From the NCBI GenBank assembly GCA_001247695.2, contig LGRX02035088.1, positions 38,342 to 102,341 on the forward strand: a stretch of 64,000 nt of DNA, in the 5' to 3' direction. Position numbers and translations under genes: made by a program. Source of the stretch: Cymbomonas tetramitiformis. Lineage: Eukaryota > Chlorophyta > Pyramimonadophyceae > Pyramimonadales > Pyramimonadaceae. The notes under the pieces were generated by a model. It was not told the origin of the DNA. It did no database searches and saw only the letters and a program-made list of their open reading frames with translations. Positions 10,377-63,820 of this stretch are shown here, in pieces. How positions within the stretch are numbered: the first letter of the stretch is position 1; each line of letters starts with the position of its first letter.

Positions 10377-11549
10377 GTTTATTGTTCCTACACGCAAGGG
10401 TGTTTTTTTGCACCAAGACTTGATGCTATTGCACAAGAAAAGACAAACGTACGTTAAACACCCAAGGAAAAATCGGATAGAGAAAAGTGCACTCTGAATG
10501 TTTCTTGGTGAATTGTATAATCCGATCTTGCCAACATGGACGCCACGTGGTAAATCATTTCCGACTAATTGCAATCTTCGTGGCAAAGCACATGCAACGT
10601 GGCAGGTGATAAATGAATATGAATGTGGGGAAAAACAATATGTGCCAGTCATCCAATAGATTGTCATGGTTGAACCTTTATTTATGCTGTTTCGTAATGG
10701 AACTGCTGGGTTCTCAGCCAATGGCACTCGAAGCCAAAGGTTGCAGGGCTCTCCACCAACTGAATTCCACTTGTATCGATTATAAGAAAAGTAAAGAAGT
10801 CATACAGAAGGGGGAAATATGGATGCTTTTGCGACCCAGATGAAAGGCGAACAATCTGACTGGTTAAATTTGTCCAATGTGGCCATAGAGCCTAATGCGA
10901 ATTTTTACGAAGCTCTGCAGGTCTCGAGCTTTTGATCTTCGAAGCTGACGCTGCAGATCCAGTCATGTTAGATGCTGCAGAGGAGTCCGGATTTGAGACG
11001 ATCCATCGCGGCAATGTGAATGTCAGTCTTGTCTCTTGAGTCTTCCAGTCCATCGGACGAGATCGGACGAGAGACGACTTTTGACCGCTGTAGCGACGTG
11101 ACACCCCTTCGCTCGGTATTGAGTACCTCGTCATTTGCCAATTAGGCCACCCCTTTAGAACCCCTGTAGAAGTACGTGCGGACCCGCCCGCCCCGGATGT
11201 ACGGTACAAAATTGCCCCGCAAAGAAGCCTTAAAACTGCATAAATAGCCAAAATATGAAATTCCTTAAGTATGAGGGAATATCATTTCCACCACTATTAA
11301 GGGAAATAAATAATCCCGCCCGCCCGCGCCACATGTACACCTAAAATGTCACGACCGGCGTACTTCTCGTACACAATTAAAAGGGCTGACCTTGTCAACA
11401 GAACGAAATACAAATAGAAATACGAAATAGGAAACATGGTCATCGCTCCGTGTGAAGTGATCGGAATGGGGCAACCAAGCGAAGGTATCGAAGCGCATGA
11501 GGAAGACCCAACCAATAAGCAATATCGCCATCGTAACGCATAACGAGAG
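10377..11549. other. No gene seen; upstream region of the Mpv17-family gene
   Basis: A 119-codon minus-strand frame at 10892-11251 is rich in Ser/Arg and has no motif, and I do not treat it as a gene. The promoter of the Mpv17-family gene should lie in 10380-10700, but no box can be assigned. Confidence 0.4.
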
Positions 11550-45593: not shown

Positions 45594-46105
45594 CTATCTA
45601 AGTGGTGGCTTGGCTGAAGGAAGCTTCCCACCAGACTGAGTGGCTGACGGATCAAGCGGAGGAAGCTTCGGTTTAGTTTCAGGAGAGGATGCAGAATTGA
45701 GTGGTGGAAGCTTCACATTGGTCTGAGAAGGCGTTGCTTTAGGTATTCCTAAGGCCTCTGGTGTTTCGTCGGCTTTCGGCGTTTCCCCGCCTTTTGGTGA
45801 CTCTTCAGCCTCTGGTGTTTTTACGCCTTCCGGCGCTTTGGAGATCATTTCAGTGGGGGGTTTCGGAGACTTGAGCAAGCTTGGGGAACTTCCGGTCTGA
45901 TCCTTTTTACCTGCGGCTGCATTTTCCTCGTTACCCTGCTCCTCTTCGTCGCTTTCGTCACTCTCATGTCCTGGAGGCACAGCCGGGGTCTGCCCTGTAT
46001 AATCAATCAATCGATGGTCCATTGAGTGCACAGTCGATTTTGCCCGTCGGCGATGGCAAGCGATGATCAACGTGCTGAGGATGACTCCCGCGCCCAAGCC
46101 GGCAC
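45594..46105 (-). CDS. Gene X last exon: transmembrane helix and cytoplasmic tail
   Basis: The exon begins two bases into a codon and reads GAGLGAGVILSTLIIACHRR: a Gly-rich hydrophobic helix, then HRRRAK as the stop-transfer signal. The remaining 145 residues are hydrophilic: an acidic stretch (ESDESDEEEQGNEENAAAGK), then Lys/Glu/Pro/Thr repeats (TPEAEESPKGGETPKADETP) and PPLNSASSPETKPKLPPLD. The tail has no kinase or phosphatase domain; PxxP-like and Ser/Thr-Pro motifs could recruit SH3 proteins or proline-directed kinases. Confidence 0.8.
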
Positions 46106-49100
46106 CTGCATGCGCCACTATTCAGCTTAGTGCAGCGCTTCATGAAGTGCGCGATGACTTTGATCCGGCTGCAGTTCGGGGTTTTACTGAATCCCTCTTT
46201 TCCCATCCCACTTGGGGCAACGCCTCGCAAGTCCCCACGGACATGGGCCGTTCTGGATATCAATAAACGATTAACGGCTTCTCCCGTCCATTGGATTCGG
46301 GGAGGAATCCAGTGACCCAGAGAAATCCGGCCTTCTGAGTGCAGAGGAAGCATGCGCATCAATGAATTAACAACCAGAAGTACAATCAGGGCACATCGAA
46401 GTCAACAATAACGCCTCACCCAAGCGTGCACTGTGACGCACCAAGCACAACAACGATGTCCATGATGCTCTGCGAGTCACTGCTGTCGGAATCCTCGGTG
46501 AGAATTTCAATCGGCGGTGGCGGCAACGGGATTGACGGAGAGGTCGGAGGCAGAGGTGGTGGAGACGGAGGAGGTGGTAAGCATGGAGGAGGCGGTGGAA
46601 GGGGGGGAGGTGGTGGAGATGGAGCAGGTGGATATGGGAAAGGAGGCGGAGGTGGGGAGACCAGGACAGTGGTGGTAGCACTTGCAATTGTGACAGTGCC
46701 GTACGAATCCACGAAGTCTCCCGAGAAAATGCTGGCAGACTCGTCCACCAGGCTCTGCTCAAACTCTACGGCGTCCTCAACACTGCTCTGATATGCCACA
46801 GTGGACTCCACCTGGCAGCACCCGGGAGGCAATGGGCCAGATTGAATGCGCATTTCTCGGAGATGACGACGGACTTCGCCTGCTGGGAGCTAATTGGGCC
46901 GTGCGAGGCTCCGGGAAAGCCGGCTCGAAAGCCGTAGAGCTATTCAGAAATTGGCTTATCCTGCTAGGAATGATCCGATTGTCACCGCTTGAAGAGATTT
47001 TTTTCGATGGAAATCAACCGCCTGGCCTCGGATGCCATGCTCAAGCGTTGGCACGTGCCACGCGCTTGCTATTGCCCCAGTTGCACGCCCGGCAGTGATG
47101 CCATTGGCATATACATCCCTGGGAGCTGTCCATGGCCCTTTCCCTTCACCAAGCCACTATTGATCCAGGCCTCTGGCCGGGGATGCCTCCTCTGTAATCA
47201 TCTGGCTCGGAGGGCCCCACGGCAGGCCAGCAGCTGGGGGACGATGACACTGGCGGATTGGTGACGGAGCGCGCATGGATGCTGCGGTGCGTGCTGATTT
47301 TTGGACAACCCCAGATCCACGGAAACTTGGGAAAGCCAGCAGGTGTGCACCATATACCCAAGCCAGAGCTTAGAGCCGAGTGGTCGGCACTGCGGGATCC
47401 GAAGCGCGCTCGTGTCGGGCACTGAGGTGTGGCAGTGAATCTGGGGCGGGGATGTGGGATACAGGGGGGGAGGGCGGACCACTACGCTCCCGGCAGTGAT
47501 ATCCACGATCTGCACAAACTCGGAGTCAACCCCCGCGGCACTTGCCAGGTCTGCGATGTACTGTGCCTCGAAGCTGGCCTGCATGGCAGCGCGCCGCCCC
47601 CCATGGTTGAGGAACTCCCCAGGCAGGAATGGGCGTGCATGTGGTGGGTAGGCATGCTTCTAGCCACCCAGTATGCTTAGGGGCGCATTTGCCTGCTACC
47701 CACCCTGAAGGTGCATCGCTGGGCGCCACTAGCCCTGAAGGTGCATCGCTGGGCGCCGCCCACCCTGAAGGTGCATCACTGGGCGCCGTCCACCCTGAAG
47801 GTGCATCACTGGGTACCACCCACCCTGAAGGTGCATCACTGGGTACCATCCACCCTGAAGGTGCATCATTGGGCGCCGCCCACCCTGAAGGTGCATCATT
47901 GGGCGCCGCCCATCCTGAAGGTGCATCACTGGGCGCCGCCCACCCTGAAGGTGCATCACTGGGCGCCGCCCACCCTGAAGGTGCATCACTGGGCGCCGCC
48001 CACCCTGAAGGTGCATCACTGGGCGCCACCCACCCTGAAGGTGCATCACTGGGCGCCGCCCACCCTGAAGGTGCATCACTGGGTGCCGCCCACCCTGAAG
48101 GTGCATTACTGGGCGCCACCCACCCTGAAGGTGCATCACTGGGCGCCGCCCACCCTGAAGGTGCATCACTTGGCGCCGCCCACCCTGAAGGTGCATCACT
48201 GGGCACCACCCACCCTGAACACGTCGTCATCGAAGGCCGTAATATCCTGGTCAACACGAGTTGCGACTGCCACCTCAGCAAGGACTGTCGGAGGTGGAGG
48301 AGGTGTTAGGAGGCGTGGCGGAGATGATGTATCGGGGGGTGGCATCGGAGGTGGAGGGGGCATCGGGGGTGGTGGGTGGAGACGGCGACATAGGTGGCGG
48401 CGGAGGGCGCGGTGGAGGTGGCAATGGAGGTGGAGGTGGGTGCGACGGCGATGGCGGGGGTGATGGGAGAGATGGCGAGACGGGCGGACTGAGGTTTGGT
48501 GGTGAGCATGGAGGCGGTGGAGGAGAAGTGAAGTAATCCCCAGGGACGCCCATGTCGACCTGCATGACGACTTGCCCCTGATACTGCATCGCCATCAGCA
48601 TCTTAAGATCCGTGTCGGCGTTGAGCAGGTCGTGCGTTTGCACCTCCATGATCATCTGCGACCGCACCGAAGAGCTCATCTCTAGCATGGACATGCAAAC
48701 GAGTTCCCGGCCAGTCTGGAAGCTTCATGCCTCTCGACCACCATAAAAACGTATTCTAAGGAAATGCGCCACCGCATTGAGCCAGCCGCATTGAGCGAGC
48801 CGCATTGAGCGAGCCGCATTGAGCCATCGCTGAATGTGACACAGAACTGAATTTGGCTGCAGGAATAACCCAGGCTCTGTCCAGCGTTGACATACGACTC
48901 TCGCCGTGGCATGCAAACGAACGTGCGTAATAAAAGCGTGACTTAGCGATGACGCGCACCTCGCGCGCGGGGAATTTCACGTCATCCGCCGGAATTATGC
49001 CAGCTAGGAGGAGTGCTGCCAAATGTGGTTCCGCGACGAGGCCTCACATTCAAATGCTGCGGTTGATACGTGGCCTCAGCCAATCACCGATTTGGTTGCG

Positions 49101-52100
49101 TCATCGCATCGGAGGCCGGCCCAGGGGGATCCTGCAGAGGGCGCTTCCCCCGCAGAAGAGAGGGACAGCAGAGAGAGACACACAGCGGGGAACTGACCGA
49201 GACTTCGTCCTTCTGATCAAACACCATCTGCATGGCCGCGCCCACAGCGTCCATCTCCTCCGAGGGGAGGTTGTATGCATCGAGTCCCAGGAGCATCATC
49301 TCATCGCCGCGCCACGTCATCCGCGCCTCCATCTTGTGCCAGTCCTCTGTGCGGTGCCCACCGCCCTCCTCTCAATGCGCGCCGTCGGGCATCAGCCCCC
49401 CCGCTCCTTCCTCCCCTCACTGCAACCGACCATGCCGTGCCACCCCTCCCCCCTCTACTTCACTCCCTGCGCATACATGGTCTTCCGCGTCGCCCTCCGC
49501 TCATCCTTGCCTCCAAGTGACGGCGATGCCCGTGTCCCCCCCTTTCATGCTTTAAACACCTCCGAGCGACTGCCCGTGCCCCCTCCCCTCCCCTGCCCTC
49601 TGTGCTGCCCCCTTTGTCCGGAGACGATGAGTCGGTTGGGGAACCAGACTTGTGCCCTTCAATTATTGGGAGCACTTTCTCTGTAAGAAAATGCTTGGCT
49701 GGTTCTTTCTCCCCATCTCCCCCTCCGCCCGATTTCCCCTGGGTACACTTTCGACGTCTCCGGAACTGCTTGACTGCCCCCCTATCGCCCTCCCCCCCTT
49801 CCCCCCATCTGGTCGCCCAGGAGTATCGGTGCAACACATTCTGCCGGTGGCGGTGCTGTGAGCAGCGCAGGGGCACCTGGCCGCTCTGAAGTGACAGCCG
49901 CCGGGACCTCCTGCGCCCTGCAGCGGGATTGCCTGCGTGCACACCCGCGGGTGCGGCAGCGCCATGTACGTTGCAAGGCTTGATCTTTGTGGCTTAGAGA
50001 CAAGCATCGAAGCACGGAGGTGCGTGGCTGCAATTCCGACACTCGGCGTGCCACTGCGCTGTCCAGACCTCCAGTGATTGACGAGGCTCATGAGGGCAGG
50101 AGACAATGAGGGAGGCTGCGGAGAAGTTGCAGAGACGGTGAGGGAGGAGGAGATGTACAGGGAGGTTAGATTGGGGAGAGGCTAAGGACAAAAAAAGAGT
50201 TGCTCGCGTTTGTTGGGCAGCGGAGGTGTTGGCGCACTTGATGCATGGACGGCGAGAAAGTACTCTGCTCCGCCGCAGGTGGTGGTGCCCGCTTCGCAGC
50301 CGCCACCGCACGCTGCATCGGGTGCTTGCCAGTGCTCTGCCGCGCTCACAGCATGCCCACCGCAAAAGCACCGTCCACTCAGGAGGGAGAAGTGTCCACT
50401 GGCGCTACACAGGCTGTGACAGCTGGCGGGGGTGTGATTGTCCTCAGTGGTGTCCACCCACAGAGCCTCGTCCGCCTCGTACTCCGTGCAACCTAGGTAC
50501 TGGAAGTCTGTTCCCCAGTCTCCACCCTCCCACTCCCATCCCGATCCCTTCAGCACACCTGCTCTGCTACTCACATCACACCCCCACATGGGTAACGCCC
50601 GATGCGTTGACGAGGGGCGGCCGGCATGTGCAAGCACTGCGAAGTGACCTCGACTCGCAGTCCAGCTCAGTGTCTCTACTCCCACGCGCCCAGCGCCCGC
50701 TCCGTGCATGATTGTGATGTGATTGAAGGGGCGCCCGGAGCAGAGGTACCGCCAACATCTCTAAAGTGGATCGCTGCACATGCGTGGTCGCTCACGTTTC
50801 CATTCATGGGTATCCATTCATTTCAAAGAATGGATACCCCGACGGCGGCACATGTCCCACACTCCCGATTGCACTGAGCCGTCCAACCCTAAAACCCTAA
50901 AACCCTAAAACCCTAAACTCTAACCGCGGAGAGGATTAGCAGTTTCAGCATCCGCTTTGTGGCACCCGCTTTGGGGCACCCAGTCTGAGCTGGCCTGAGC
51001 TGGTGGAGGTGCAGCCTGGATCCCGCGCGAGCCGGCATTGCAGCACGCGCTTGCCAGAGCCGAATCGGTGTTGCGGAGCAAGCGCCCTCGTTGGCAATTC
51101 ATATTCGCCGCTCATGCCAGGTCCACGGGGCGGGGGACCGAGTACCCGAGGCAGCAGTCTGGAGTGCTCGCCCCGCATGGCAGCGCCAGGCGAGCCGCGC
51201 GGGCGACAACCTGAATTCTGGCGGATGGACCCCGTCCAGTTCAGCTCCATCACACTCTCCTGCTCGATGATCAGGCACATTTTCAAGATGGCCTCCTGGT
51301 GGACGTCATCCACGAGCGCGAGGCTGACGTTGTGATTCAGCCACGGAGCCGCCTCATAGTCCACTAATAGCAGATGCAACGCACCATCCCCGCTGTAACG
51401 TCCGAGCCACTGCCGACGGCCACAACCATCTCCAACCCCCCTCCCCTCTCCTCCTCTATCGCGGTGGGAAGTGCATTCCGTCACCTGGACGTTCACACTA
51501 CGCCTGGAACAACACCCGCAGGGCCCTCCACGCCATAGATCCCCGATCCCCGATCACTCTAGGCTGGGGTTACAAGGGTCGGGCCTGACTGACCTGGGCG
51601 TGCATGAGGGGTGATTTTTCACGTGTCAGGATCATCTCTGCATCCGCCACCTCGCCACTTCCGTACGGCATCGTGTAAGCGAAGCTGTTCAGATCTATCC
51701 ATTCCTGCTCAGGCACGTTGCAGGACCGGACCCCTCCAAGTTCTTTATCACACATCCCATGCGACCAATGCTCTAAGCCTCCTTTTGGATCTTGTATGCG
51801 GACCCTGCATGGGATGGAGGGACTCCCGTCCAAAAACCACCTCCTGCCCGTGCAGCGCAATCTCCGATGTGCGCAGGTCTACTTTACCGCGGTGCCGCGT
51901 GCTCCCGCAGGACAACCTTTATCTGCACACCGCGGCTGTGTTCGGGAGGTGCAGCAAGGACATGCTGTGTTCACCCTTTATCTGCACACCGCGGCTGTGT
52001 TCGGGAGGTGCAGCAAGGACATGCTGTGTTCACCCTTTTTATCTGCGGCTGTGTTCGGGAGGTGCAGCAAGGACATGCTGTGTTCACCCTTTATCTGCAC

Positions 52101-55100
52101 ACCGCGGCTGTGTTCGGGAGGTGCAGCAAGGACATGCTGTGTTCACCCTTTATCTGCACACCGCGGCTGTGTTCGGGAGGTGCAGCAAGGACATGCTGTG
52201 TTCACCCTTTATCTGCACACCGCGGCTGTGTTCGGGAGGTGCAGCAAGGACATGCTGTGTTCGCCCAAGTGTGGTGAAGATATCTTGTCGTTGCCCGACC
52301 TTCAGGAGGTGCGGCAAGCACATGCTGAAGTTGCCCAGATTTGGGCACGTGCGGCTAGCACACGTTTCGATTCCCTGACCTTGGGCGAATTGCGGCGAGG
52401 ACATGCTGTGGATGCCGAGGCTTAGAGATGTGCGATTGGGATGCATCCGGGGATGTGAAAATGTGAGCATGAATGCAATGGGCGCAGGAGCGGATGCCAC
52501 GGAGCATTTTCCAATATGAGGATGCACAGGGACCTGTTTAGGAAGACACCCATCCGCTACTCCCTCCGGTGCAACTCGCGCAGCATGTGGTGGGGCCACG
52601 GCAGCCGCACCTCCCCGTCTCTCCACATGGTCGTGAGCAGGCCTGCGTCGTGCCCGGAGATGAAGGCACTTCCATTCATGGTCAACGAGGTGTCGCTCCG
52701 AAACCTGCACAGCTCACGGTCGCCCCCAGCGATCACCCATCGACGCATTTCGCCAGTGAGGGCGACTGGGCGGCCAGGATGTGGCAGCGGAAACAGAGCG
52801 TGGACAGGTCGGCGACAAGCACTCACAAAGCTCGCCCGGTCATGTTGAGCAGATCGTGGTCAATGGTGGAGCTGGCAACCAGCGCCCCGCTGGCATCGAG
52901 CCAGGGGTCCTCCCTCCAGTCGAGCTCCACAGTGCCCTGGAATTGCGCCCCGATTCCCCAACGCCTCTCCCGCTCATCTCGCCATGTTCCAATGTCCGAC
53001 TCGTGGCCGTGCTCGATGTTTGTGCAATAAGGGTCATTGGATGGTGTGAGACCAAAGCTGCGCGGTGTGATGTGGAGTCGATATGCCTTACAGTGATCCA
53101 TCCTCCTCGCATCGCCAGATGCACTCGTGGGGCGGAGTCATCAAAGGCCTACACGGGCCCGCTCCCAGTGAAGGTGGTGGTGCAACCATGCTTTTCCTCG
53201 CATGCGCTCACCATCTGAGCTAGGCACTGCGGGTGCACCATGGCAGCGTCCCTCATTCACTACTGCAACCAGGCGGAAAAAGCTGGAAGGGGAGGGGGGG
53301 GGGGACACTTGGGTACGAGGAGGGTACATCGGGTGAAGCAGGCAAAAGGGAGGCTGTACTGTGATCGTGCTGTTATCTGACTCCGACCACGATGCCGTCC
53401 CCGAGCCACCGAGCAGCGCGCTGTAAGATTTGATCAGACCCGAAACCTCGGAGTCTGATAGATTGCCTCGTCCACTCACGGCATCGTCCCTGCGTCCGCC
53501 CCGCCATCCTCCCATCTCCTTAAGACACCCCATACCGGCCCACATCACACTCTCCGATCAAGACACCCCAGCCTACCTGTTGCGACTACTGCTGTGACTA
53601 CTAGGACTCTCAGGCGGCTAGGTATGCTTTAGTATCCGCCTCAAGCTCGACGATTACTGTGCACAACCCTGTAAGGGCACGGCGGTGTAAGGGCAAGGGT
53701 CGCGCACAGTGACCGCCGAGTGTGAGGCGGATACTAAAGCATACCTAAGCCCCTGAGAGTCCTAGTAGTCACAGCAGTAGTCGCAGTAGTCTGGCACGTG
53801 TGCACCTCTGCTGAAGCGGTACTCGCACTAGCGCGGCCATTGATTATCCAAGGCAGCGTAGAGAGGGTCTATCCCTCCCTCCTAACCCCACATCACTCCA
53901 CGCATGCCTCCGCACATAGCAGTCGCGAGTATAAGCCTCATCACAAAAAGAAGCGGGCTGATCCGAGGGCCCGCGGGCCCCGGCGAGCCAGCCACGTGTC
54001 ACAGAGAGGGCGCGCTCACCAGATGGCCGTCTCAAAGGAACCCCACAGGCCGAGGTCAGCGAGTTCCCCGAGGGCGGAGATGTTGACCCGCAGGTGCCCG
54101 TCACCTGCGCCATCCACCCTTACCCACACCGGTGAGAGCCCTGTGCCCCCGTGCTCTATGCACAGCAGCAGCACCAGAGAGCTGTGCGGCCGGAAGGACG
54201 CTGGCAGAAGATGATGCAAGCATCATGCGCATCGTCCAATCAAAGCGCGCCACTCAAAACAAGCGCTCTAGGTGTGATACCACCGGCACACACGGATCTG
54301 CAGCTCCTGCCGACCCCCCACCGCTTCTCCGCACGGTCCGATGCACCTGCTCTTTTCAGCATCCTGTGGTCTGCTCTCTCTCTCTCCTGTGTATTCACTA
54401 CTTCCGCTGGATGCACGGGTGGCTACTACAGCTCGATGCAGAGGGGGGGGGTCCGTTCATTTAAAACTTTTCCCTTGTAGGACCTGAGCGCCCCCCTTGT
54501 GGGGCCTCAAAGGGTCTGCGGTGAGGCCTTCAGGCGCCGAACATGATGCCTCGCGCACGGTGAGGCCGGGAGACACCCTGGAGATGCCAGGAGGGACCCT
54601 GGATGCGGGTTGGAGGAGTCCAGGCTGGAGGTAAGCGCTGCCAGCTTGACGCAGAAAGCGGCGGCGGTACCTGATCCATTTGGGTGTGCCAGGCCAGCAT
54701 CCGGCTCTGCATCCACCTCCACGATGAGAGTGCCCTCGCCGCCAACCAGAAGCGCTGTGCGGCTCTCCTCCAGCATCTGCCCAAACGCGTTGCCTGCAAA
54801 GTCGTACCCGGAGTTCTCGGGGGGGCGCCACGCATCTTGTGGCGCCCCCGCGCAGTCGTAGTACAGGCAGCCGCTTTGAGCCAAGTCCGAGTCAAGAACT
54901 TGGGAGCCGAGGTCAGTGTCAGTGTCGGAGTCGGAGTCGGAGTCGGAGTCAGAGTCGGAGTCGGAGTCGGAGTCGGAGTCTATTGCAGCACACACCAAAC
55001 AGCACGCACTGATCACCGTGGTGGATTCCAGACATCAAACCAGGATGGCTTCCTTTGGGGCCGCGGGGAACCTCCTAGGGCCGTCCGATATTCCCGATTC

Positions 55101-58100
55101 AGAAACATCGGAAGGCTCCGCTGGACATTCGGGTCAGAGACATTCGGGTGAGGATGCAAACGCAAGAAGACGGAAACAGGGCCACGGATGCGCACCCGGT
55201 ATGTTGTATTTGACCCCTGCGAGCAGCGTGAGCGCCTCCTTGCCGGAGCTGTCAATATGGTGCAAGGAGCCGTACACCGCCTCGTCCAGATCCGCCCTCC
55301 CTGACACCGCTAGGTGGAGGTCGTCGCCGCCATCGTCCATGCCCAAGTCCATGTACGCTTGCAACGTGTCGTAGCCACCGTCGCGGCCGGTGAGGCCTCG
55401 GATGCTGCCCTTCAGCCACGGGTCCTCCGTCACATTCCACGAAGTGTGGCCCCAGAATTCCTTGTCCTCACTCTCGCCGACCAGCAGCATCCCAAGCTGA
55501 GGGCGCTGGTTGTACGCAAGGTCCCCAGACACCTCTATGCGGGAGTCTCCAAGGTGTGCTGCTCCCTCCCCGGAAATGCGGTGCACGTCCTCTCCGTCCA
55601 GCTCCTCGTCCAGCACCAAGTCCATGCGCACCCTCCCCACCTCCACGTCATCCTGTGCCGTGAAGCTCCAGGCGTGCAGGGCGTGATCCAGGAACTGCTT
55701 TTCCATGAAGCTGATGTTGGACGTTGCGGTGAGATAGTTGTCGCCCGCCACCCATCGTTCCTGCCATGCCAGTTGCTCGGCGCCGTCGTACCGTAAATAA
55801 ACGTCACCGTGCAGATGGGTGCCGTCCCCATCCTCGGGGGACTCGTGCGTGGTGGCGGAGGCGAAAGCATGCATCCACTCCCGGGACCCCTCAGTCACGT
55901 TCAGCACTGCCCCATCGACGCTCACCGCCAAGGTCACACTCATGCCGTGCGTCTCCTCGCCGCCCTCTTCCATCGTCATATCCGCCACCATGGCAAACTC
56001 CTCCTGCAGTTGGTTTCCAATGGTCAACAGTGAGATGCTCTCCTTCGTCCGATCGATGCGGCGGCACATCCACCACAAATCGCAAAGAACCTCTAAGGAA
56101 ATGCAGAGCGCAGCGACCGCTGCGCAAAAGTCAACGACTGCGCCCTGTGACGCCTGGTGCTACTAGTGGTCACCACACCACGGGGTTCATTTATGGCGAT
56201 TGTCGTCCGGCACTGCCTCCTATTCTTTCACACTTGCCGGCCATTTAGCTGGTCATGAGTTGCCCTATGACTCGCGTAATGACTCGCCTCTGCCATTGTC
56301 TAAAACCAAGAAAGCGCCTCTGACACTGTCTAAAATCAAGGAAGCGCCTGTGCCATTGCTCCACGTCTGAGTGAGGCGCATCTCGCACAACATGACCACA
56401 GGCCTGCGCACTGCGCCGCCTCGGAAACACCTATGTTGGGATCTCGATTCTAAAAACAGGGCACCCGAGCAACCACCTGTGTGGAGTCCCACAGGCCGTC
56501 GGACACCATCTGCATCCCCAGCTGCTCCCCAGGCTCCAGGGTGGTCTCGACCTCGAGCACCCCGAGCATCTCCTCATCCACTACCATCGAGAGCTTCATC
56601 CCCATCGACATGTCATCTGAAGTGGCGTCCTCCCCGGCTCCCATGCCCACTCCGGTGCTCAGGTTGAGGGCAACCATCGCGTGGCTGGAGTCAGAGAGTC
56701 TTGTGCCGAGCTCCAACAAGTATCTGCTCTCCACCTTCGCAGGCGCCGCTGCAGTCACGCAGATGTAGAAGCCCCCTGCGCCGCTCTCCCGGGTGTAAGC
56801 GGTGGCCTCAAAGCGCAGCGCGGTGCTCGGGTCGACCTGCGCCCAGCACCCCTCCTCGCTGTGACGGGGCGCAGGCAGGGGCGTGGAGGGTGGGCAGGTG
56901 GTGCAAACGCGGGCAAGCCTCGGTCTGATGCGACGCCCCTGGAATGATGGCGTGGAATATGTCGAGCTGGGTAAGGGAGGCCATGTTCAAAATAGCCCCC
57001 CCGCGCCTCCCCCGCGCCCCAGACAGATGTGCGAGCCAGGGAGCACGCAGGCGCTCCGCGTGTGCTTCGATGGGCGGAAGATAGTGCACAGAGAGTTCCC
57101 ACGGTCACCAGCAGACCCCACCCGCACGATCCCGACCCCTCGACGCAAGATCTCGTCAGATGATGCCATCTAGCATCTTTTGACCGGGTCAGACGTAGGC
57201 CCTTCGACCTATCACATTGCATCATCATGCACTACACGCTGCACTGCGCACTATGGACGTGGCGAGTAGCAGCGTTTTCCGACAACAGCCTACACCCGCT
57301 TGAACACGGAGCGGCGATGCTATTGCCGCAAGGCTGTGTGGGTCACACACCACCCTCATTGCCTCTGCTACGCCAGGGTCACCGTACTCAAGACCTGAGG
57401 GAGGAAGTTTGGCTCTAAACAAAGTATCTCAGGGAGGAGGCGCGACTCCGAAGGTAGGATTGCAGAGAGGAGGCTTGGCTCTAGTTCATGAGCGCTGGAA
57501 CACGCAGCGCTGCGCTTGTATCTACCGCGCCGCCTCCTGAGGGGCCGTCAACGGGAGTGATGGAGCGGAGGGGTCGGGAAGTTCAGTGCTCACTAATAAA
57601 GAGAAAGGGATTGCATCAATATTCAACTCTAAGGGGTTGTACGCAGCCTGAGGAAGCTGACATGGTAGAGAGTTGCAAGTGTTGAAAAGTGCTAAATACG
57701 GCCACTTGGAGTCGAATAACAATGCAATCTCTTTCTCTTTATTTTTGCTCAGGCCAGCGATTGAGGATAGCTCACTGGCGGTTCTCACCTGCGCGACGAA
57801 ACCTTCAGTTCCCGAGTGCGCCACGTCGCCCACATAGAAGTAGTCCTCCGCCAGCAGGTGGAAATAGTGCACGTCGAGGTAGCCAGACCCGCTCACTTGG
57901 AGCTCACACCCCGCCCCGGGGTTGTAATGTGCCGGGTAATTTGGGCTCTTGACGCACTGTCCGCCTGCGTACCTCCCACACACGGAGTCGAGTCACTATC
58001 GAGAGTGTATCGCTCTATGGGCGATCTACGCTTTGACGGTCGGGCTTCTTCGACAATCCGACGGTGGAATGCCCAGAGTTGCAGGGGGAGCTCTACCGTA

Positions 58101-59416
58101 TTCAGAGCCGCAGTCCACACAGGAGCATTATGTGTCTCCGTCCACCGTTTGCATCCGCACCATCAGGCTGTGAGCTATTGCAGAGGAAGCTTAAGGCCAC
58201 AAGAAACCCTAAACCCAAAACCTCGTGGCTGCTTCACCGGCACATAGAGGGAGCGAATCACAGCATCGCGCTGCGGGGGCATCGCCGCCGGCCCCCGGGT
58301 GAGCGCAGCAAGAAGCAGCCGCTCGTCGTGGAGGGGAGGAGCCCCCGCACTGCACATGACTGCTGGCGGGCAAGCATATCGCAGCAGGCAGCAGGGCGCC
58401 CCGTGGGACAACGGGGGAGTGCTCCTTCGAGTTGGGAACTGCCGTTGTGCCACTTACGCAATTCAACGGAGGAAGTACGCACATCTGCTGAACGGCGCTC
58501 ACTGGCCGCAAGCTCCTCACCTGACGTGATCGTACAACTGCTGTCATCCATGAGTTGGAACGCAATGGGGGGGGAGGAGGAGGAGGCGTCTGATGGAGGA
58601 GAGGGCGTGGCTGACTGCTGTGCGATATCTGCATCAGCAGACGAAAACTGCACCTCCACGACCTCCATGAGGGTGTGAAACTCGAATAGGCGGGGTTCGG
58701 TGGCGGTGAGCCAATGATTATCGCCGTCACTGTCAACTCCAGGCCTCGCAAAGCCTATGACCTCGATATCCATGCGGCCTTCTCCCTCGCCGCCTTCGTC
58801 CTCGAAGTTCAAGGATGCGGTGCAATTCGCTAGCTCCAGGAGCTCCGACCCCTGCGACGCACTCTCCAGTCGCATCTCCCGGCCGGCATCAGGCAAACGC
58901 CGGACACACCTGATCGCCCCCGTGCCGTCGGGCACATCCCTGCTAACCCACCCTACTCACCCCTACCAAGCAGAGCCCGTGCGTCTCCGGTTGGACCAGG
59001 TGGACATGGATGCAAGTTGCAAACACACTCCGCAGCTCTTCGTCCGTCCGATCTCTGATTCGAGCGAACTTGACCGCACATTGCAAGGCATCTGAAAAGT
59101 CCGCGCCAACCAGAGGCTCCGTGAGCGCATAGCCCTCGCGCCGTCCTGCGGAGTCAGGCCAGCTCGCGCGGTGTCTGGGGACGGGCGTCTGTCGGTCCTG
59201 CGGCATGCGAGATGATCGTTGTGAGGAGGGACCTGATAAAGGATGGCACCCTCCACGTAACCGAGGAGATCCCAGTACGAGTCCACGTCCACCGCACCCC
59301 CGAGGGTGACGTCCACGTCCAGAACGTCCTCCCCTGATTGGTCAATACGCAGAAGCATGCGGATATTGTCGTCCGTGAAGCGCCAGTCGGACACTGTCCA
59401 GTCTACACCGGAGGTC
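45594..59416 (-). CDS. Gene X: giant modular type I membrane protein (CUB-like, WSC, SEA-like, polyproline), 5' end incomplete
   Basis: Exons with agreeing phases, 5' to 3': 57789-57964, 56477-56836, 55196-56090, 54671-54979, 54020-54104, 53360-53420, 52827-52936, 52611-52704, 51594-51704, 51211-51409, 50238-50507, 49198-49346, then a proline-rich exon from 48715, 48214-48273, 47486-47578, 46420-46811, a probable 46276-46334, and 45594-46105 (stop). The first twelve alone give 939 codons. Upstream exons 58521-58939, 58961-59197 and 59233-59416 belong to the same protein by content, although the junction into 58939 is one base out of phase in my model. The ectodomain repeats a beta-rich module recognisable by 'GDN(H)WLTAT'/'GDNYLTAT' and by 'EDPWL(K/D)(G/A)S'. 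N-glycosylation sequons are frequent. The protein probably sits in the plasma or flagellar membrane and takes part in adhesion or wall contact; that role is inference. Confidence 0.8.
46420..46811 (-). CDS. Gene X exon: SEA-like end and polyproline linker
   Basis: VESTVAYQSSVEDAVEFEQS is followed by VDSYGTVTIASATTTVLV, then a run of Pro blocks (FPYPPAPSPPPPPLPPPPP and on) and an acidic end EILTEDSDSSDSQSIMDIVV. SEA-like segments joined to PPSPP linkers are typical of pherophorin-like and other algal surface proteins. Confidence 0.75.
47486..48273 (-). CDS. Gene X exons encoding a SEA-like domain split by a minisatellite-filled intron
   Basis: Exon 48214-48273 gives VAVATRVDQDITAFDDDVFR and exon 47486-47578 gives ASFEAQYIADLASAAGVDSE then FVQIVDITAGS. 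Joined in phase 0 they form one domain of the form 'di..Fd...F...f...la...gv......v..itaGSv', which then runs into VESTVAYQ of the next exon. The 635-bp intron between them is mostly the 30-bp array. Confidence 0.78.
47701..48213. repeat. 30-bp minisatellite, about 17 copies, in a gene X intron
   Basis: The unit CACCCTGAAGGTGCATCACT plus GGGCGCCGCC is very regular and starts at 47701. The unit is a multiple of three, so long decapeptide ORFs exist on both strands, but splice sites show the array is intronic. Confidence 0.93.
48310..48715 (-). CDS. Gene X exon: Met/Gln-rich segment and second polyproline linker
   Basis: It begins TGRELVCMSMLEMSSSVRSQ and continues with LLNADTDLKMLMAMQYQGQV and DMGVPGDYFTSPPPPP, then Pro/Ser blocks. 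The acceptor at 48716 is in phase with the exon at 49198-49346. The donor is unresolved: no good GT lies in phase before the stop near 48275. It could use GTCTCG within the Pro-rich part or GTCCCT just before it, which would make the Pro run intronic. Confidence 0.6.
48775..48826. repeat. 14-bp tandem repeat, four copies
   Basis: The unit GCCGCATTGAGCGA lies in a gene X intron. Confidence 0.85.
50238..50507 (-). CDS. Gene X exon: WSC domain
   Basis: One exon carries a full WSC (cysteine-rich, carbohydrate-binding) domain: DFQYLGCTEYEADEALWVDT, then ASCHSLCSASGHFSLLSGRC, FCGGHAVS and ACGGGCEAGTTTCGGAEYFL. The spacing YLGC...C...C....F.....CFCG...C...C....CGG is the family signature, with all eight cysteines present. 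WSC domains occur in yeast wall-stress sensors and polycystin-1 and bind glycans; here it sits close to the membrane-proximal part. The start uses AG at 50508-50509, which keeps phase with the preceding exon. Confidence 0.9.
50887..50917. repeat. Interstitial CCCTAAAA telomere-like run
   Basis: Three and a half copies of CCCTAAAA (complement TTTTAGGG, the Chlamydomonas-type unit) lie in a gene X intron. Confidence 0.9.
51211..51704 (-). CDS. Gene X exons: beta-rich module with PWL motif
   Basis: Exon 51594-51704 (EWIDLNSFAYTMPYGSGEVA) joins 51211-51409 (WLGRYSGDGALHLLLVDYEA, then APWLNHNVSLALVDD and VMELNWTGSIRQNS). 'APWL' followed by an alternating strand matches the 'EDPWL' motif in the exons at 52.9 and 55.4 kb, so this is another copy of the repeated ectodomain module. 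Confidence 0.72.
51916..52266. repeat. 59-bp minisatellite, six copies, with diverged copies to 52.4 kb
   Basis: The unit TTTATCTGCACACCGCGGCT continues through GTGCAGCAAGGACATGCTGT. The third copy lacks 7 bp. Diverged GTGCGGCAAGCACATGCTG-type copies follow. Intronic to gene X. Confidence 0.92.
52611..52936 (-). CDS. Gene X exons: repeated module with EDPWL motif
   Basis: 52827-52936 reads GTVELDWREDPWLDASGALV then STIDHDLLNMTG, and 52611-52704 reads FRSDTSLTMNGSAFISGHDA then GLLTTMWRDGE. Phases match each other and both neighbours. NMTG is a glycosylation sequon. Confidence 0.75.
53360..53420 (-). CDS. Gene X small exon (Ser-rich)
   Basis: ALLGGSGTASWSESDNSTIT. It was found because the exons at 54020 and 52936 are out of phase without it; with it both junctions close. 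The donor is GTACAG and the acceptor TTACAG. Confidence 0.6.
53582..53782. mobile_element. 201-bp foldback element in a gene X intron
   Basis: Arms of about 62 bp (GCGACTACTGCTGTGACTAC to GGCGGATACT complement) pair with few mismatches. Inner CTGTGCACAACCCT/AGGGTCGCGCACAG also pairs, so almost the whole element folds on itself. Confidence 0.85.
54671..54979 (-). CDS. Gene X exon: (Asp-Ser)n linker and Cys-containing module
   Basis: The exon starts with eight or nine Asp-Ser pairs followed by DTDTDLGSQVLDSDLAQSG, then CLYYDCAGAPQDAWRPPENS, GYDFAGNAFGQMLEESRTAL and a beta-rich end LIVEVDAEPDAGLAHPNGS. The SD run comes from a (GTCGGA)n hexamer microsatellite at 54925-54979 and is coding, since splice phases on both sides agree. 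Confidence 0.75.
55196..56090 (-). CDS. Gene X large exon: tandem beta-rich ectodomain modules
   Basis: An uninterrupted 298-codon exon beginning VLCDLWWMCRRIDRTKESIS. Module features include MSVTLAVSVDGAVLNVTEGS, AWQERWVAGDNYLTATSNIS, GRVRMDLVLDEELDGEDVHR, DSRIEVSGDLAYNQRPQLGM and TSWNVTEDPWLKGSIRGLTG. Alternating hydrophobic strands, many Asp/Glu turns and NVT/NIS sequons point to an extracellular repeat sheet. There are no cysteines in the later modules. Confidence 0.82.
56477..57964 (-). CDS. Gene X exons: CUB-like domain and following module
   Basis: Exon 57789-57964 gives GGQCVKSPNYPAHYNPGAGC, then ELQVSGSGYLDVHYFHLLAE and DYFYVGD. Exon 56477-56836 continues with VDPSTALRFEATAYTRESGA and GGFYICV. 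Joined in phase 0 they give a complete CUB-type fold: C.SPNYP..Y....C, a hydrophobic core, 'D.F.VGD', 'LRF.......GGF'. The gene's AG choice at 57965-57966 adds GGQ and keeps phase with the 58521 donor. CUB domains mediate extracellular protein contacts. Confidence 0.85.
57595..57743. mobile_element. 149-bp MITE-like inverted repeat in a gene X intron
   Basis: 35-bp arms AATAAAGAGAAAGGGATTGC... and complement have three to four mismatches and a loop of about 80 bp. No target duplication was recognised. Confidence 0.65.
58521..59416 (-). CDS. Gene X upstream exons (LTAT module and neighbours)
   Basis: 58521-58939 contains LLELANCTASLNFEDEGGEG, GVDSDGDNHWLTATEPRLFE and VVEVQFSSADADIAQQSATP, and ends in a strong GTGAGG donor. 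58961-59197 reads REGYALTEPLVGADFSDALQ then EELRSVFATCIHVHLVQPET. 59233-59416 reads TSGVDWTVSDWRFTDDNIRM then GEDVLDVDVTLGGAVDVDSY. The last two join in phase; the link between 58961 and 58939 is out of phase in my model, so a small exon or another acceptor is missing. Confidence 0.65.
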
Positions 59417-59535: not shown

Positions 59536-62500
59536 CCGTTTTGCGTGGCACGTGAAATTCCCACTGCATGCGGTCGATGCGAGCGCCCGGGGCAGGCGGC
59601 GCCCCCGGGCGCCACCCACGGCCTGGCAGCATGCGTTGCCATGACAGGAGTGGGGCAGTACCCGGTGAAATGTAGCAGGAGGTACGGATCAAAGTCGGTG
59701 CTGTCTGCTGCTAGGTGAGTCTCATCCCTGGTCCAGCGTGGGCTCAACCCCGACTGTCAGTGAGCAGGCCGTGGGGGCCTCCGGAGGGGGCACCAAGGGG
59801 GGAGGGGCACACAAAATCCCCGTCCTCCTCCTGGACTGACCATCACTGTCGTTGTTCGACGCGCATGCTCCTCACGGCGAGGAAGCTAGCGCCACGCCAG
59901 TGGGCTTGAGTGCTCCGAGGGAGTACTCGTGCCCTGGGGGGCGCGCTCGGCAGCCCGTGCAGGAGCCACCCGACGGTGGCATCAGAGGCACCCACGCCAC
60001 CAACATCTGCGCAGAAGGAGGCACTGGGTGGTGAAACCGGGCATGACTGATGCGGTCGGATATGAGGCAGCGGCAACTCCTCCTCGGGTTTCACTCCCGC
60101 AGCATTCCATCCTCCGATTTTGGTCACATTTCGGGGGAAGCTGTGCGTGCATGCAGCATGGCGAACTTGCGGAGCCGGCGTGGAGCACCAGTATGCCACT
60201 TCCGCCACCAAGGTGCTGTTCAACTCGGAGAGCACCATCTTCGATTCCAGTTTACTAATGTCGCTGTCTTCGAGCGTCATATCCCACAGCAGGTACAGAT
60301 AACTGGACATCTCCGAGGATTCCTCCGAGGCCTCTGCGCGACGCCCGCCCTCCCCGCACCTCCACACCACCACGATGAGGGCTGATGGCAGCAGCCTCGG
60401 GGCTGAGACGGCGCTTAGCGGATGCCCGTGTTCGTACAGCGTCTGGGTCTCCAGCGAATATGGGCGACGTCCCGATCAGAGCGGAGCGAGCTCGGGGCCG
60501 AAGCACACAACCCAATTGCCGGTAGCTAGCTTTAGAAAATCTCAGCCGTGAGAATAGGAAATTATGCGAATCGCGGAAGAAGCGTAATGAGACAAGGTGC
60601 TCGTGGCGCGCCGCCATTGGCTACGTTGGCGACGGCGGCACCAACAGATGCGCGCCGCACACAGTGATTCTGCCAGGTTGGTAATCTAGAGTGTTTTGAA
60701 GGAGCTCCGAGAGTTTTGCAGGATCATATATTCATGGGCAGATCCTGAGGTCTAGGTAGAGCCCAGGGTTGTTTGAAGGGTGTGATGAGGGCCTTGGCGA
60801 TAGCTGCGGGCTTCGCACCGTCTTTTTCACCTAAGACTCCTCGCAATGTTGTATTCAAGTAGCTGCCTGCACCGGACAAAACCGAGTGCACTCCTCAACC
60901 CGAACCACACCCTTGCCACACTGGAGGACAGGACCGAGTGCACTCCTCAACCCGAACCACACCCTTGCCACACTGGAGGACAGGACCGAGTGCACTCCTC
61001 AACCCGAACCACACCCTTGCCACACTGGAGGACAGGACCGAGTGCACTCCTCAACCCCTCAACCACACCCTTGCCACACTGGAGGACAGGACCTAGTGCA
61101 CTCCTTAACCCCAACCACCCCTTGCCACACTGGAGGACAGGACCGAGTGCACTCCTCAACCCCAACCACACCCTTGCCACACTGGAGGACAGGACCGAGT
61201 GCACTCCTCAACCCCAACCACACCCTTGCCACACTGGAGGACAGGACCAGTGCACTCCTCAACCCCAACCACACCCTTGCCACACTGGAGGACAGGACCG
61301 AGTGCACTTCTCAACCCTAACCACACCCTTGCCACACTGGGAGACAGGACCAAGTGCATTCCACAAGGGTGAAAAAATAACGTTTCCTTAGACATTAATT
61401 GGAACTTCTTACATACCACGCGCATCGGGGACATCGAAGGGGGGGGTCAGGGGGGTCACCGACGGGAGCACGGCTGTGAACACATCACCCATCGAGCAAA
61501 GGGCAAAGGATGGAATTTTGCTTAGACATATTTCTTCGCCCAACACGGCCGCACTTTCAAAACGCTCACCACAGACGCGGATTCATCGTTTAATTAGGGC
61601 ATTTGTACGTATGTAGCAATCTATGAATTTCGCAGGACTTCCCCGATTTTCAGCCAAACCCGTAAGACCAGCAGCCCTCATCGTACGGTCACTGCCCGAA
61701 TCATCCAAGGGCCGGTTTGTTCCCTAAAATGGGCGAGCGCTTTCGCCCTCTATCTCGGCATATGGCAAAAGGGAGAGGCAGAGGGGAGCCACCCATCTCT
61801 ACGTTGACAACCACGTCGTTCTCCGAAAGATGCAAATTGACCACCGTTTGCGCCACAGCGTTCCCAAGGTCGCACAGCAAGTTGTCACATGCAAGCCTCA
61901 GTTTGAACACACTCTGAACATCGCCCGTCCACCACCCTTCAGAGCCCACATCTGTCACCGCCAGGGCTCAACTCGATGCCACTTAGGGTTGCACAGGCAA
62001 CTGTGGCAGCTGGTCAAGGCGCCGAGACGCGCATGTGGAGCTGTGGCAGCTGGTCAAGGCGCCGAGACGCGCATGTGGAGCTGTGGCAGCTGGTCAACGC
62101 GCCGGGACGCGCATGTGGAGCTGTGGCAGCTGGTCAACGCGCCGAGACGCGCATGCGGAGCTGTGGCAGCTGGTCAACGCGCCGAGACGCGCATGTGGAG
62201 CTGTGGCAGCTGGTCAATGCGCCGAGACGCGCATGCGGAGCTGTGGCAGCTGGTCAAGGCGCCGAGACGCGCATGCGGAGCTGTGGCCGCTGGTCAAGGC
62301 GCCGAGACGCGCATGTGGAGCTGTGGCAGCTGGTCAAGGCGCCGGGACGCGCATGCGGAGCTGTGGCAGCTGGTCAAGGCGCCGAGACGCGCATGCGGAG
62401 CTGTGGCAGCTGGTCAAGGCGCCGAGACGCGCATGTGGAGCTGTGGCAGCTGGTCAACGCGCCGAGAGGCGCATGTGGAGCTGTGGCGGCTGGTCAAGGC

Positions 62501-63820
62501 GCCGAGACGCGCATGCGGAGCTGTGGCAACTGGTCAAGGCGCCGAGACGCGCATGTGGAGCTGTGGCAGCTGGTCAAGGCACCGAGACGCGCATGTGGAG
62601 CTGTGGCAGCTGGTCAACGCGCCGAGACGCGCATGTGGAGCTGTGGCAGCTGGTCTAAGCGCCGAGACGCGCATGTGGCAAAGGCGGGGGAGGGAGAGGG
62701 CTCTAACGGGAGGATGAAGAGGCAGCAGCGAGCAACCTGAGGATCCAGCATGCGCACCAAGGAGTCCACTTCGTCTGCGATGGTCCCTTGCCCCTGCTGT
62801 GTTTCTTGAAGCAGCACACGACGTGCCACGTCAGCCCCAAACAGTTTAGGCATCACGCCTGCTTCATAACAGCCCCACTCGCCCAAACACCCCTCTCCCT
62901 CCCCCTCTCCCTTCACAACTTCTCCACTACAAAGAGAACTGATGCTTGGTCCCTCGAACTCATTGAACAGGACCGCGCTCCTAACGGCCCAGGCATCGCC
63001 CGGCAAGCCATGGCAGCAGTGCAGATATTGGTTGGTAAGCACTGGGGGTCCTCGAGCCCCTGTACTGCAAACGAGGGAGACCTGGAATCTGGCAAACCTG
63101 ACGACCTACCAGTCTAATGGCCTACCAAAGCGAATGCCAAAAATCGTGCAATGGTCACATCAGCCCACACGCAATCCTCGGCAACTGGATGCAGGGAACA
63201 GCCGCGACAGGCAAATGCTCCAACCCCGCGCAAGGAGGCCATGGGGTTCCCCCCTGCCTCACCGGGGGCCCAGCATGTCATTATGCGGCCGCCCCTCACC
63301 ACCTGGCATCGGGGTTAGCTTCCATCGCCCTGCCAATCAAGCCGGGCCACACATCAAGTTCGCCGGGAACCCTGACGAAGTCCACGGCCGCTCGCCGGTG
63401 CCGCACCTGCCAGAACGTTCCATCCTGCCTTGGGCGATCCATCAAGGAGTTGGCGCGAAGCTGCAAGGGAGCTTCGCCGTCGATCCTTCAGAGCCGCTGC
63501 AGCTGCCGCGGCGCCTGCGACCGCGTTACCACCGAAGCTCCACGCAGAGTCACGTTGCTGAGAGAGACGCGTTGCTGAGAGAAAGTCGCGTTGCTGAGAG
63601 AGAGTCGCGTTGCTGAGAGAAAGTCGCGTTGCTGAAAAGAAAACGTTACTGAGAAAGTCGTTGCTGAGAGAGTCGCGTTGACACAATCAGCGCCTCTGTT
63701 ACATCCCACCAGTGGTGCCGCCCCTTCCTGCCTCACGGGCCGCACCCTCCTCGCATCACGTAAGTATGCTGCCTCACCTGCTGCCATGCAGCTCACGTTA
63801 CGGCCGTCCGATTGAAGCAC
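59536..63820 (-). CDS. Gene X provisional 5' exons
   Basis: Protein-like pieces with plausible splice sites: 59536-59565 (WEFHVPRKTD), 59662-59707 (DSTDFDPYLLLHFTG), 60189-60302 (SYLYLLWDMTLEDSDISKLE ... STLVAEVAYW), 61793-61951 (DVGSEGWWTGDVQSVFKLRL ... NDVVVNVEMG), 62737-62858 (VMPKLFGADVARRVLLQETQ ... LVRMLDPQ), 62931-62980 and 63778-63820. Their acidic, beta-rich style matches gene X, and all lie on its strand. Phases between them were not all reconciled, so order and borders are tentative. The start codon and signal peptide were not found and probably lie right of the window. Confidence 0.45.
60883..61365. repeat. 52-bp minisatellite, about nine copies
   Basis: The unit ACCGAGTGCACTCCTCAACC plus CCAACCACACCCTTGCCACA and CTGGAGGACAGG. 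Small indels occur among copies. Intronic to gene X. Confidence 0.93.
62001..62680. repeat. 40-bp minisatellite, 17 copies
   Basis: The unit CTGTGGCAGCTGGTCAAGGC plus GCCGAGACGCGCATGTGGAG is exact in length throughout, with C/T and G/C variation at a few fixed positions. The plus strand is open in all three frames; the gene-sense minus strand contains a TGA in each unit, consistent with an intron. Confidence 0.96.
63550..63682. repeat. About 20-bp tandem repeat, seven copies
   Basis: The unit GCGTTGCTGAGAGAAAGTC has variants GTTACTGAGAAAGTC and GTTGCTGAAAAGAAAAC. Confidence 0.88.

What the first reader, a model, noticed from the sequence alone, without database searches (positions are those of the whole stretch)
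45594..59416. Gene X: one surface protein combining CUB, WSC, SEA-like, polyproline and novel beta modules
The combination of a CUB fold (animal-type), an all-cysteine WSC domain (fungal wall sensor type), SEA-like plus Pro linkers (algal type) and a repeated 'GDN..LTAT ... EDPWL' module on a single-pass anchor is an architecture I do not recognise. WSC and a charged tail suggest a glycan or wall-stress sensor.
Basis: partly seen in the sequence, partly recalled or inferred. Interest (0 to 1): 0.85.

Follow-up and report, generated by a model that had tools for sequence, protein, structure and literature searches.

The report
Mosaic algal-type cell-surface receptor gene
A split gene, probably from a green alga, appears to encode a large sugar-coated cell-surface protein that joins a wall-sensor-type knot, half of an animal-type adhesion domain, unknown acidic sheets and a domain resembling one that cuts itself beside the membrane; it would matter as a possible force-sensing receptor, but no messenger RNA or relative has confirmed it.

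Summary
The minus strand of 60.4-45.6 kb reads best as one exon-rich gene for a type-I membrane glycoprotein. Supported: held-out codon bias (positive in 10 of 12 segments); 13 of 25 ectodomain Asn in N-x-S/T sequons (shuffle mean 3.6); an eight-cysteine WSC signature spaced like Kremen1 and yeast Wsc1; an in-frame C-terminal chain giving a SEA-like domain with the self-cleavage motif GSVVV, a Pro stretch, one membrane helix and a 153-residue tail. Weak: CUB is only a first half (Pfam E 0.13); Pfam sees neither WSC nor SEA; the 'GDN..LTAT/EDPWL' module is at best a faint repeat. Between the WSC part and the SEA/membrane part the Pro stretch changes frame; read straight on it stops at 48275, and a second gene could start at 47584. 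One gene is likely, not proven. No relative was found. WSC plus CUB on one membrane span is known from animal Kremen. Best reading: a ligand- or glycan-binding adhesion receptor with a SEA-type mechanical fuse.

The parts
60189..60340 (-). Possible upstream exon E0 (beta-rich); the true start of the gene was not found and may lie further up, even beyond 64000
   Evidence: open frame chosen by the exon model; weak
59662..59727 (-). Possible exon E1
   Evidence: exon model; weak
59243..59416 (-). Exon E2, acidic beta-strand module; 3' edge chosen by hand
   Evidence: held-out codon score +12.8, best of six frames; recovered first of 1364 ORFs by a profile of the other modules, E 0.03
58961..59092 (-). 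Possible exon E3, open in more than one frame
   Evidence: frame chosen by hand to fit the splice phase of E2
58521..58851 (-). Exon E4, beta module with GDNHWLTAT and one N-glycosylation sequon
   Evidence: held-out codon score +12.2 for 58815-58610; sequon
57789..57962 (-). Exon E5, N-terminal half of a CUB-like domain (SPNYPAHY...C)
   Evidence: Pfam CUB E 0.13, below cut-off; the three PDB matches listed are complement C1s at E 0.67-0.75; codon score +10.2 against -4.4 for the read-through behind it
57595..57743 (.). Foldback (inverted-repeat) element in the intron after the CUB half
   Evidence: arms of 47 nt, 81% complementary, 55 nt apart
56477..56857 (-). Exon E6, beta module, one sequon
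   Evidence: exon model; no Pfam family above cut-off; sequon
55196..56003 (-). Exon E7, the long module exon (GDNYLTAT, EDPWL; three sequons)
   Evidence: held-out codon score +63.5, the five other frames negative; no Pfam; no homologue; AlphaFold2 mean pLDDT 33.9, mostly strands
54669..54911 (-). Exon E8, one sequon
   Evidence: held-out codon score +16.5 for 54912-54655; sequon
54020..54180 (-). Exon E9, one sequon
   Evidence: exon model; sequon
53564..53802 (.). Foldback element in the intron between E9 and E10
   Evidence: arms of 107 nt, 83% complementary
53360..53488 (-). Exon E10, two sequons
   Evidence: exon model; sequons
52827..52936 (-). Exon E11, module with EDPWL, one sequon
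   Evidence: held-out codon score +8.8; sequon
52611..52703 (-). Exon E12, one sequon
   Evidence: exon model; sequon
51623..51704 (-). Exon E13
   Evidence: held-out codon score +3.6 for 51700-51600
51231..51361 (-). Exon E14, module with APWL, two sequons
   Evidence: exon model; sequons
50238..50562 (-). Exon E15, WSC-type domain; eight-cysteine core at 50490-50269; one sequon
   Evidence: cysteine spacing 22,3,12,1,17,3,6 then GG; Kremen1 24,3,15,1,16,3,7; Wsc1 21,3,15,1,14,3,7; held-out codon score only +0.9 but best of six frames; no Pfam match at E 10
49198..49344 (-). Exon E16, beta module
   Evidence: held-out codon score +15.0
48370..48679 (-). Exon E17a, beta module followed by a Pro-rich linker (frame 0); lower edge approximate. 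Read straight on, frame 0 stops at 48275
   Evidence: held-out codon score +9.0 for 48680-48540; three-frame reading; stop
48214..48390 (-). E17b: Pro-rich linker in the next frame, then strand 1 of the SEA-like domain (from 48285). Frame jump against E17a near 48370, unexplained; upper edge approximate
   Evidence: three-frame reading and in-phase chain to the stop
47699..48219 (.). 30-bp minisatellite, 17.4 copies, in the intron inside the SEA-like domain
   Evidence: TRF; exons on either side join in phase without it
47480..47578 (-). Exon E18, helix 1 and strand 2 of the SEA-like domain, ending in GSVV of the GSVVV motif. An ATG at 47584 is the possible start of a second gene
   Evidence: in-phase chain; codon score +8.4 for 47600-47480; GSVVV occurs once in six frames of the window; ATG
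46442..46811 (-). Exon E19, strand 3, helix 2 and strand 4 of the SEA-like domain, Pro-rich linker, first half of the membrane helix
   Evidence: in-phase chain; codon score -4.0, not the best frame
45594..46105 (-). Exon E20, second half of the membrane helix, HRRRAK, 153-residue Pro/charged cytosolic tail, stop
   Evidence: join gives IVVVLGAGLGAGVILSTLIIACHRRR and one stop at the end; tail counts; codon score -29.7; the exon model itself preferred a shorter version of this exon without the helix

Best explanation
The locus is one split gene for a large type-I plasma-membrane glycoprotein. Its acidic, N-glycosylated ectodomain of beta-rich modules carries half of a CUB-like unit and a WSC domain as binding heads; Pro-rich linkers flank a juxtamembrane SEA-like domain; one helix crosses the membrane; and a Pro/charged tail faces the cytosol. 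Proposed working: the WSC (and perhaps the module) part binds a glycan or protein partner outside; the SEA-like domain cuts itself at G|SVVV during folding and stays together by its sheet; pulling on the ectodomain separates the halves, shedding the ectodomain and/or signalling through the PxxP tail to the cortex. Shown by sequence: the exon chain apart from the frame jump, WSC cysteines, sequon enrichment, GSVVV, membrane join. Inferred: one transcript, self-cleavage, force sensing, ligand, tail partners.
For: Coding: exon model score 294.5 on this strand, 54.5 on the other, 5.6 +- 4.4 in 12 shuffles (trained on the same region); leave-one-out codon score positive in 10 of 12 segments and best of six frames in 11 of 12. 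Secreted part: 13 of 25 Asn of E1-E14 in sequons, shuffle mean 3.6, 1 of 20,000 shuffles as high, 0 of 4 in the tail, each sequon inside a single exon; 174 D+E against 45 K+R in those 997 residues. WSC: eight cysteines, both CxxxC pairs, CxCG and CGG in order (references). SEA and anchor: E17b-E18-E19-E20 in frame to a single final stop, GSVVV in the order expected between strands 2 and 3, the loop where SEA domains are cut (PMC6954182 passages).
Against: No transcript; the Pro stretch changes frame near 48370, frame 0 stops at 48275 and an ATG stands at 47584 before the SEA-like exon, so a two-gene parse loses only 1.9 units; at the 15 other break points tried the loss was 5.4-35.0, of which 9 are the fixed start and stop penalties. 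Pfam finds no WSC or SEA at E 10, no PDB sequence matches either; AlphaFold2 models of E7 and the WSC exon are low-confidence and the WSC model's 16 Foldseek rows hold no WSC structure. No start codon or signal peptide was found. The tail exon scores as non-coding by codon use. GSVVV is one of 8 looser GS[VIL][VIL][VILA] matches in the window.
Confidence: 0.42

Rival explanations
1. Two neighbouring genes on one strand: a secreted module/CUB/WSC protein ending in the Pro stretch at 48275, and a short Pro-SEA-membrane-tail protein starting near 47584.
For: Frame 0 of the Pro stretch runs to a stop at 48275 and an ATG at 47584 opens the SEA-like exon in frame; this parse costs only 1.9 units. 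Codon use of the last exons differs.
Against: It leaves out the stretch that reads PPPPPTVLAEVAVATRV in frame with the SEA-like exons and supplies that domain's first strand; the second protein would begin MQASFEAQY, with no signal peptide by eye.
Confidence: 0.25
2. A structural adhesion or coat glycoprotein: the acidic beta modules bind calcium or coat polysaccharide, the WSC domain helps to anchor it in the matrix, and the SEA-like domain only sheds it; no signalling.
For: Very acidic, lysine-poor ectodomain, many sequons, Pro spacers; WSC domains also occur in a lectin and an exoglucanase (PMC9024836 passages).
Against: A 153-residue tail with four PxxP matches is more than an anchor needs.
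Confidence: 0.23
3. A decaying copy: a once intact receptor gene now carrying a frameshift and intron insertions.
For: Frame jump, half a CUB, foldback elements and minisatellites in introns.
Against: Open exons with held-out codon bias and dense sequons; the insertions sit in introns of the model; a single-base error in a C-rich Pro-coding run would be an ordinary assembly fault.
Confidence: 0.1

Closest known systems
Kremen1/2 (animal Dickkopf receptors; kringle-WSC-CUB-membrane span)
   Same: WSC and CUB on one single-pass type-I protein with a linker and a cytosolic tail (PMC5014086 passages); WSC cysteine spacing nearly the same
   Different: No kringle matched; here the CUB half comes before WSC; long acidic beta modules, Pro linkers and a SEA-like domain are not among the Kremen domains named in the passages; tail 153 against 60-75 residues
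Fungal Wsc1-type wall sensors
   Same: WSC domain on a plasma-membrane-spanning sensor (PMC9024836 passages)
   Different: Here WSC is deep in the chain, not N-terminal; SEA-like domain and beta modules added; no Ser/Thr-rich rod noticed (feature recalled)
SEA-domain receptors (MUC1; Gpr126, which has CUB and SEA; GPR110/GPR116 with GSVVV or GSIVA)
   Same: GSVVV between strands 2 and 3 of a beta-alpha-beta-beta-alpha-beta pattern (strands judged by eye) close to the membrane (PMC6954182 passages)
   Different: No match to Pfam SEA or to any PDB chain by sequence; Pro-rich linkers; no seven-helix part
FAZ1_cons (Pfam PF23398, trypanosome flagellum attachment protein)
   Same: The only Pfam family listed for the SEA-like domain, E 0.047, 14 bits (cut-off 27.5)
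   Different: Far below cut-off; may be chance

Membership tests
WSC domain (PF01822) | eight cysteines with two CxxxC pairs, CxC and CGG, in order and spacing | tested here: met
   spacing 22,3,12,1,17,3,6 + GG against Kremen1 and Wsc1; 0 of 400,000 shuffles
WSC domain (PF01822) | match to the Pfam profile above cut-off | tested here: not met
   no family at E 10 for 50520-50240
WSC domain (PF01822) | PAN/Apple-type fold | tested here: inconclusive
   single-sequence AlphaFold2 model mean pLDDT 46; Foldseek and VIA lists uninformative
CUB domain (PF00431) | match to the Pfam profile above cut-off over the domain | tested here: not met
   E 0.13, 13.1 bits (cut-off 21.4), positions 12-34 of 110
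CUB domain (PF00431) | second half with an F-x-S-D ... G-F strand pattern (pattern recalled) | tested here: not met
   no pattern match in three minus frames of 64000-45300; read-through behind E5 scores as non-coding
SEA domain (PF01390) | match to the Pfam profile | tested here: not met
   no SEA at E 10 for the spliced domain
SEA domain (PF01390) | GSVVV-type cleavage motif between strands 2 and 3 | tested here: met
   motif present across E18/E19, once in the six frames of the window, 8 looser matches; strand placement judged by eye
SEA domain (PF01390) | ferredoxin-like fold and self-cleavage | not testable with these tools
Kremen receptor | kringle-WSC-CUB triplet | tested here: not met
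   the CUB half lies before WSC, and no kringle was matched in any exon piece scanned
Type-I single-pass membrane protein | one membrane helix with basic cytosolic flank | tested here: met
   in-phase hydrophobic stretch followed by HRRRAK; judged by eye, no helix predictor run
Type-I single-pass membrane protein | N-terminal signal peptide | tested here: inconclusive
   gene start not found in 59.5-64 kb

The most novel reading that the evidence does not exclude
A unicellular green alga carries its own force-sensing receptor: a WSC head and a previously undescribed acidic beta-module ectodomain coupled to a self-cleaving juxtamembrane SEA-type fuse and a proline-motif tail, an arrangement built apart from animal Kremen and fungal Wsc sensors.
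Probability: 0.18. Interest if true: 0.75.

Novelty: new variant of a known kind. Interest (0 to 1): 0.45.

Why it matters
If the gene is as modelled, an animal-style mosaic receptor with a wall-sensor domain and a possibly self-cleaving membrane-proximal domain exists outside animals and fungi, which makes the question of when such mechanical receptors arose directly testable by one cDNA and one cleavage assay. It also shows how profile libraries can miss: an exon with the full WSC cysteine pattern has no Pfam match.

Tried and rejected
Homologue searches of the long module exon (875 candidates, none at E 0.001), of the joined chain, residues 100-1000 of 1609 (the 7987 candidates sharing most words scored, none), and of the WSC stretch (34 candidates, none at E 10) gave nothing; so did scans of viral contigs with E7 and WSC and of prokaryote genomes with E7. 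Those contig collections are viral and prokaryotic and I do not know how many algae the protein library holds, so this is not evidence of novelty.

Repeat module: leave-one-out profiles recover E2 first, but E17, E16, E14, E11, E4, E6, E0 rank 67th, 11th, 34th, 51st, 114th, 59th, 328th among the non-training ORFs; E7b and E7d are not fair tests as each shares an ORF with the other. So I do not claim a proven repeat. I first took the 30-bp minisatellite as possibly coding and rejected it: it is open in several frames and the exons around it join in phase without it. The read-through behind the CUB half is rejected as coding (foldback element). I guessed from memory that the 9753-10799 ORF was an Mpv17-type protein; Pfam gave nothing at E 0.01.

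Paper searches for WSC, SEA or CUB with algae (1, 1, 2, 0 and 6 papers) showed nothing on such a protein in titles and abstract starts; I read none of those papers. Papers of which I saw passages: PMC10675990, PMC5741210, PMC9024836, PMC5014086, PMC6954182, PMC4456727.

Full report
What is there. The minus strand between 60.4 and 45.6 kb is a series of short open frames with shared codon use, cut by introns that hold minisatellites and two foldback elements. A simple exon model trained on 12 segments of this region scores 294.5 on this strand, 54.5 on the other, 67.9 and 6.0 on the two strands of 26.3-45.0 kb, and 5.6 +- 4.4 (maximum 14.8) on 12 Markov shuffles. Because it was trained here, I also scored each segment with a model that had not seen it: 10 of 12 are positive in frame and 11 of 12 are best of six frames; the WSC segment is barely positive (+0.9), and the two that are not positive are the Pro-rich exon (-4.0) and the tail exon (-29.7). 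The segments were picked as open frames, which favours them.

An independent sign of real protein is glycosylation. In the 997 joined residues of E1-E14, 13 of 25 Asn lie in N-x-S/T; shuffling gives 3.6 on average and reached 13 once in 20,000. Read exon by exon, so that no join can make one, the same 13 stand, and 19 pieces from E1 to E19 hold 14 in 28 Asn. The tail has 4 Asn and no sequon. E1-E14 is acidic, 174 D+E against 45 K+R. Both fit a secreted, membrane-anchored protein.

WSC. Exon E15 has eight cysteines spaced 22, 3, 12, 1, 17, 3, 6 and then GG. The cysteines named in the two structure papers (passages read: PMC5014086; PMC9024836) give 24, 3, 15, 1, 16, 3, 7 for Kremen1 and 21, 3, 15, 1, 14, 3, 7 for Wsc1. 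No Pfam family matches it at E 10, no PDB sequence, and the fold test was inconclusive. I regard it as a divergent WSC domain, at about 0.85.

CUB. Exon E5 shows SPNYPAHY and a following cysteine, Pfam CUB E 0.13 over positions 12-34 of 110, and the three PDB rows listed are complement C1s at E 0.67-0.75. Behind it the frame is open but scores as non-coding (-4.4 against +10.2) and lies over a foldback element. No second half was found. A CUB-like half at best.

SEA-like domain and anchor. From 48285 the stretches 48285-48214, 47578-47480, 46811-46442 and 46105-45594 join in frame, length divisible by three, with one stop at the end. By eye they spell strand, helix, strand, GSVVV, strand, helix, strand, then Pro stretch, then a membrane helix made across the last intron, HRRRAK and a 153-residue tail. 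The loop between strands 2 and 3 is where SEA domains are cut, GSVVV is the self-cutting motif, and cleaved SEA domains are thought to part under force (PMC6954182 passages); the MUC16 paper (PMC4456727 passages) shows that a predicted site need not be the one used. Pfam SEA does not match at E 10; the only row is FAZ1_cons, E 0.047, below cut-off. GSVVV occurs once in the six frames of the window, looser forms 8 times.

The weak link. Just upstream of the SEA-like domain the Pro-rich reading changes frame near 48370. Read straight on, frame 0 stops at 48275, and an ATG at 47584 opens the SEA-like exon, so the exon model loses only 1.9 by splitting the gene there; at the 15 other points tried it loses 5.4-35.0, of which 9 are fixed penalties. 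Against the split, Pro-coding runs on across the jump in the other frame and passes straight into PPPPPTVLAEVAVATRV, the missing first strand of the SEA-like domain. A single-base error in a C-rich run is the easiest account, but I could not tell it from a missed splice or a real mutation, and I left it alone.

The module. Long exon E7 has no known relative in the searches made. The commonest recurring shape, seen by eye in E2, E6, E7 and E17, is a hairpin with a Met-rich strand, an acidic turn and a Val-rich strand.

How it most likely works, and what is known. WSC domains bind carbohydrate or protein partners in the cases cited by PMC9024836. A binding head on a long acidic glycoprotein, with a SEA-type site next to the membrane and Pro motifs inside, fits a receptor that can be pulled apart. 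Steps beyond the sequence are inference. WSC plus CUB on one membrane span is known in Kremen; what differs is the order, the half CUB, the modules, the Pro linkers and the SEA-like part. The organism is not known; TTTTAGGG-type repeats at 50885-50917 (label recalled), GC-rich coding and repeat-rich introns suggest a green alga, perhaps a prasinophyte like Cymbomonas (passages of PMC10675990 and PMC5741210 read), but no call identified it.

Noticed in passing
window 50885-50917: Four tandem AACCCTAA units (TTTTAGGG on the other strand), a Chlamydomonas-type telomere-like repeat (label recalled), in an intron of the model.
   Followed up: no
window 2001-34000 against 34001-64000: G+C is 0.42-0.52 in 2-34 kb and 0.49-0.63 in 34-64 kb; in Cymbomonas integrated viral DNA is on average about 10 points lower in G+C than its flanks (PMC10675990 passage). 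Four ORFs of 2-34 kb were tried with Pfam and none matched at E 0.01; no wider search for viral genes was made.
   Followed up: partly
window 727-1119 +: C-terminal part of a tubulin-tyrosine ligase family protein, Pfam TTL E 1.8e-22.
   Followed up: partly
window 34694-41287 -: Another chain of exon-like frames with similar codon use; no Pfam match at E 0.01 for the two of its pieces scanned.
   Followed up: partly
window 61704-61967 -: Open frame ranked second by the module profile that left out E2, E 0.36; perhaps a further upstream exon.
   Followed up: no
window 37025-37546, 51916-52266, 60874-61366, 62001-62678: Large minisatellites of 31, 59, 52 and 40 bp.
   Followed up: no
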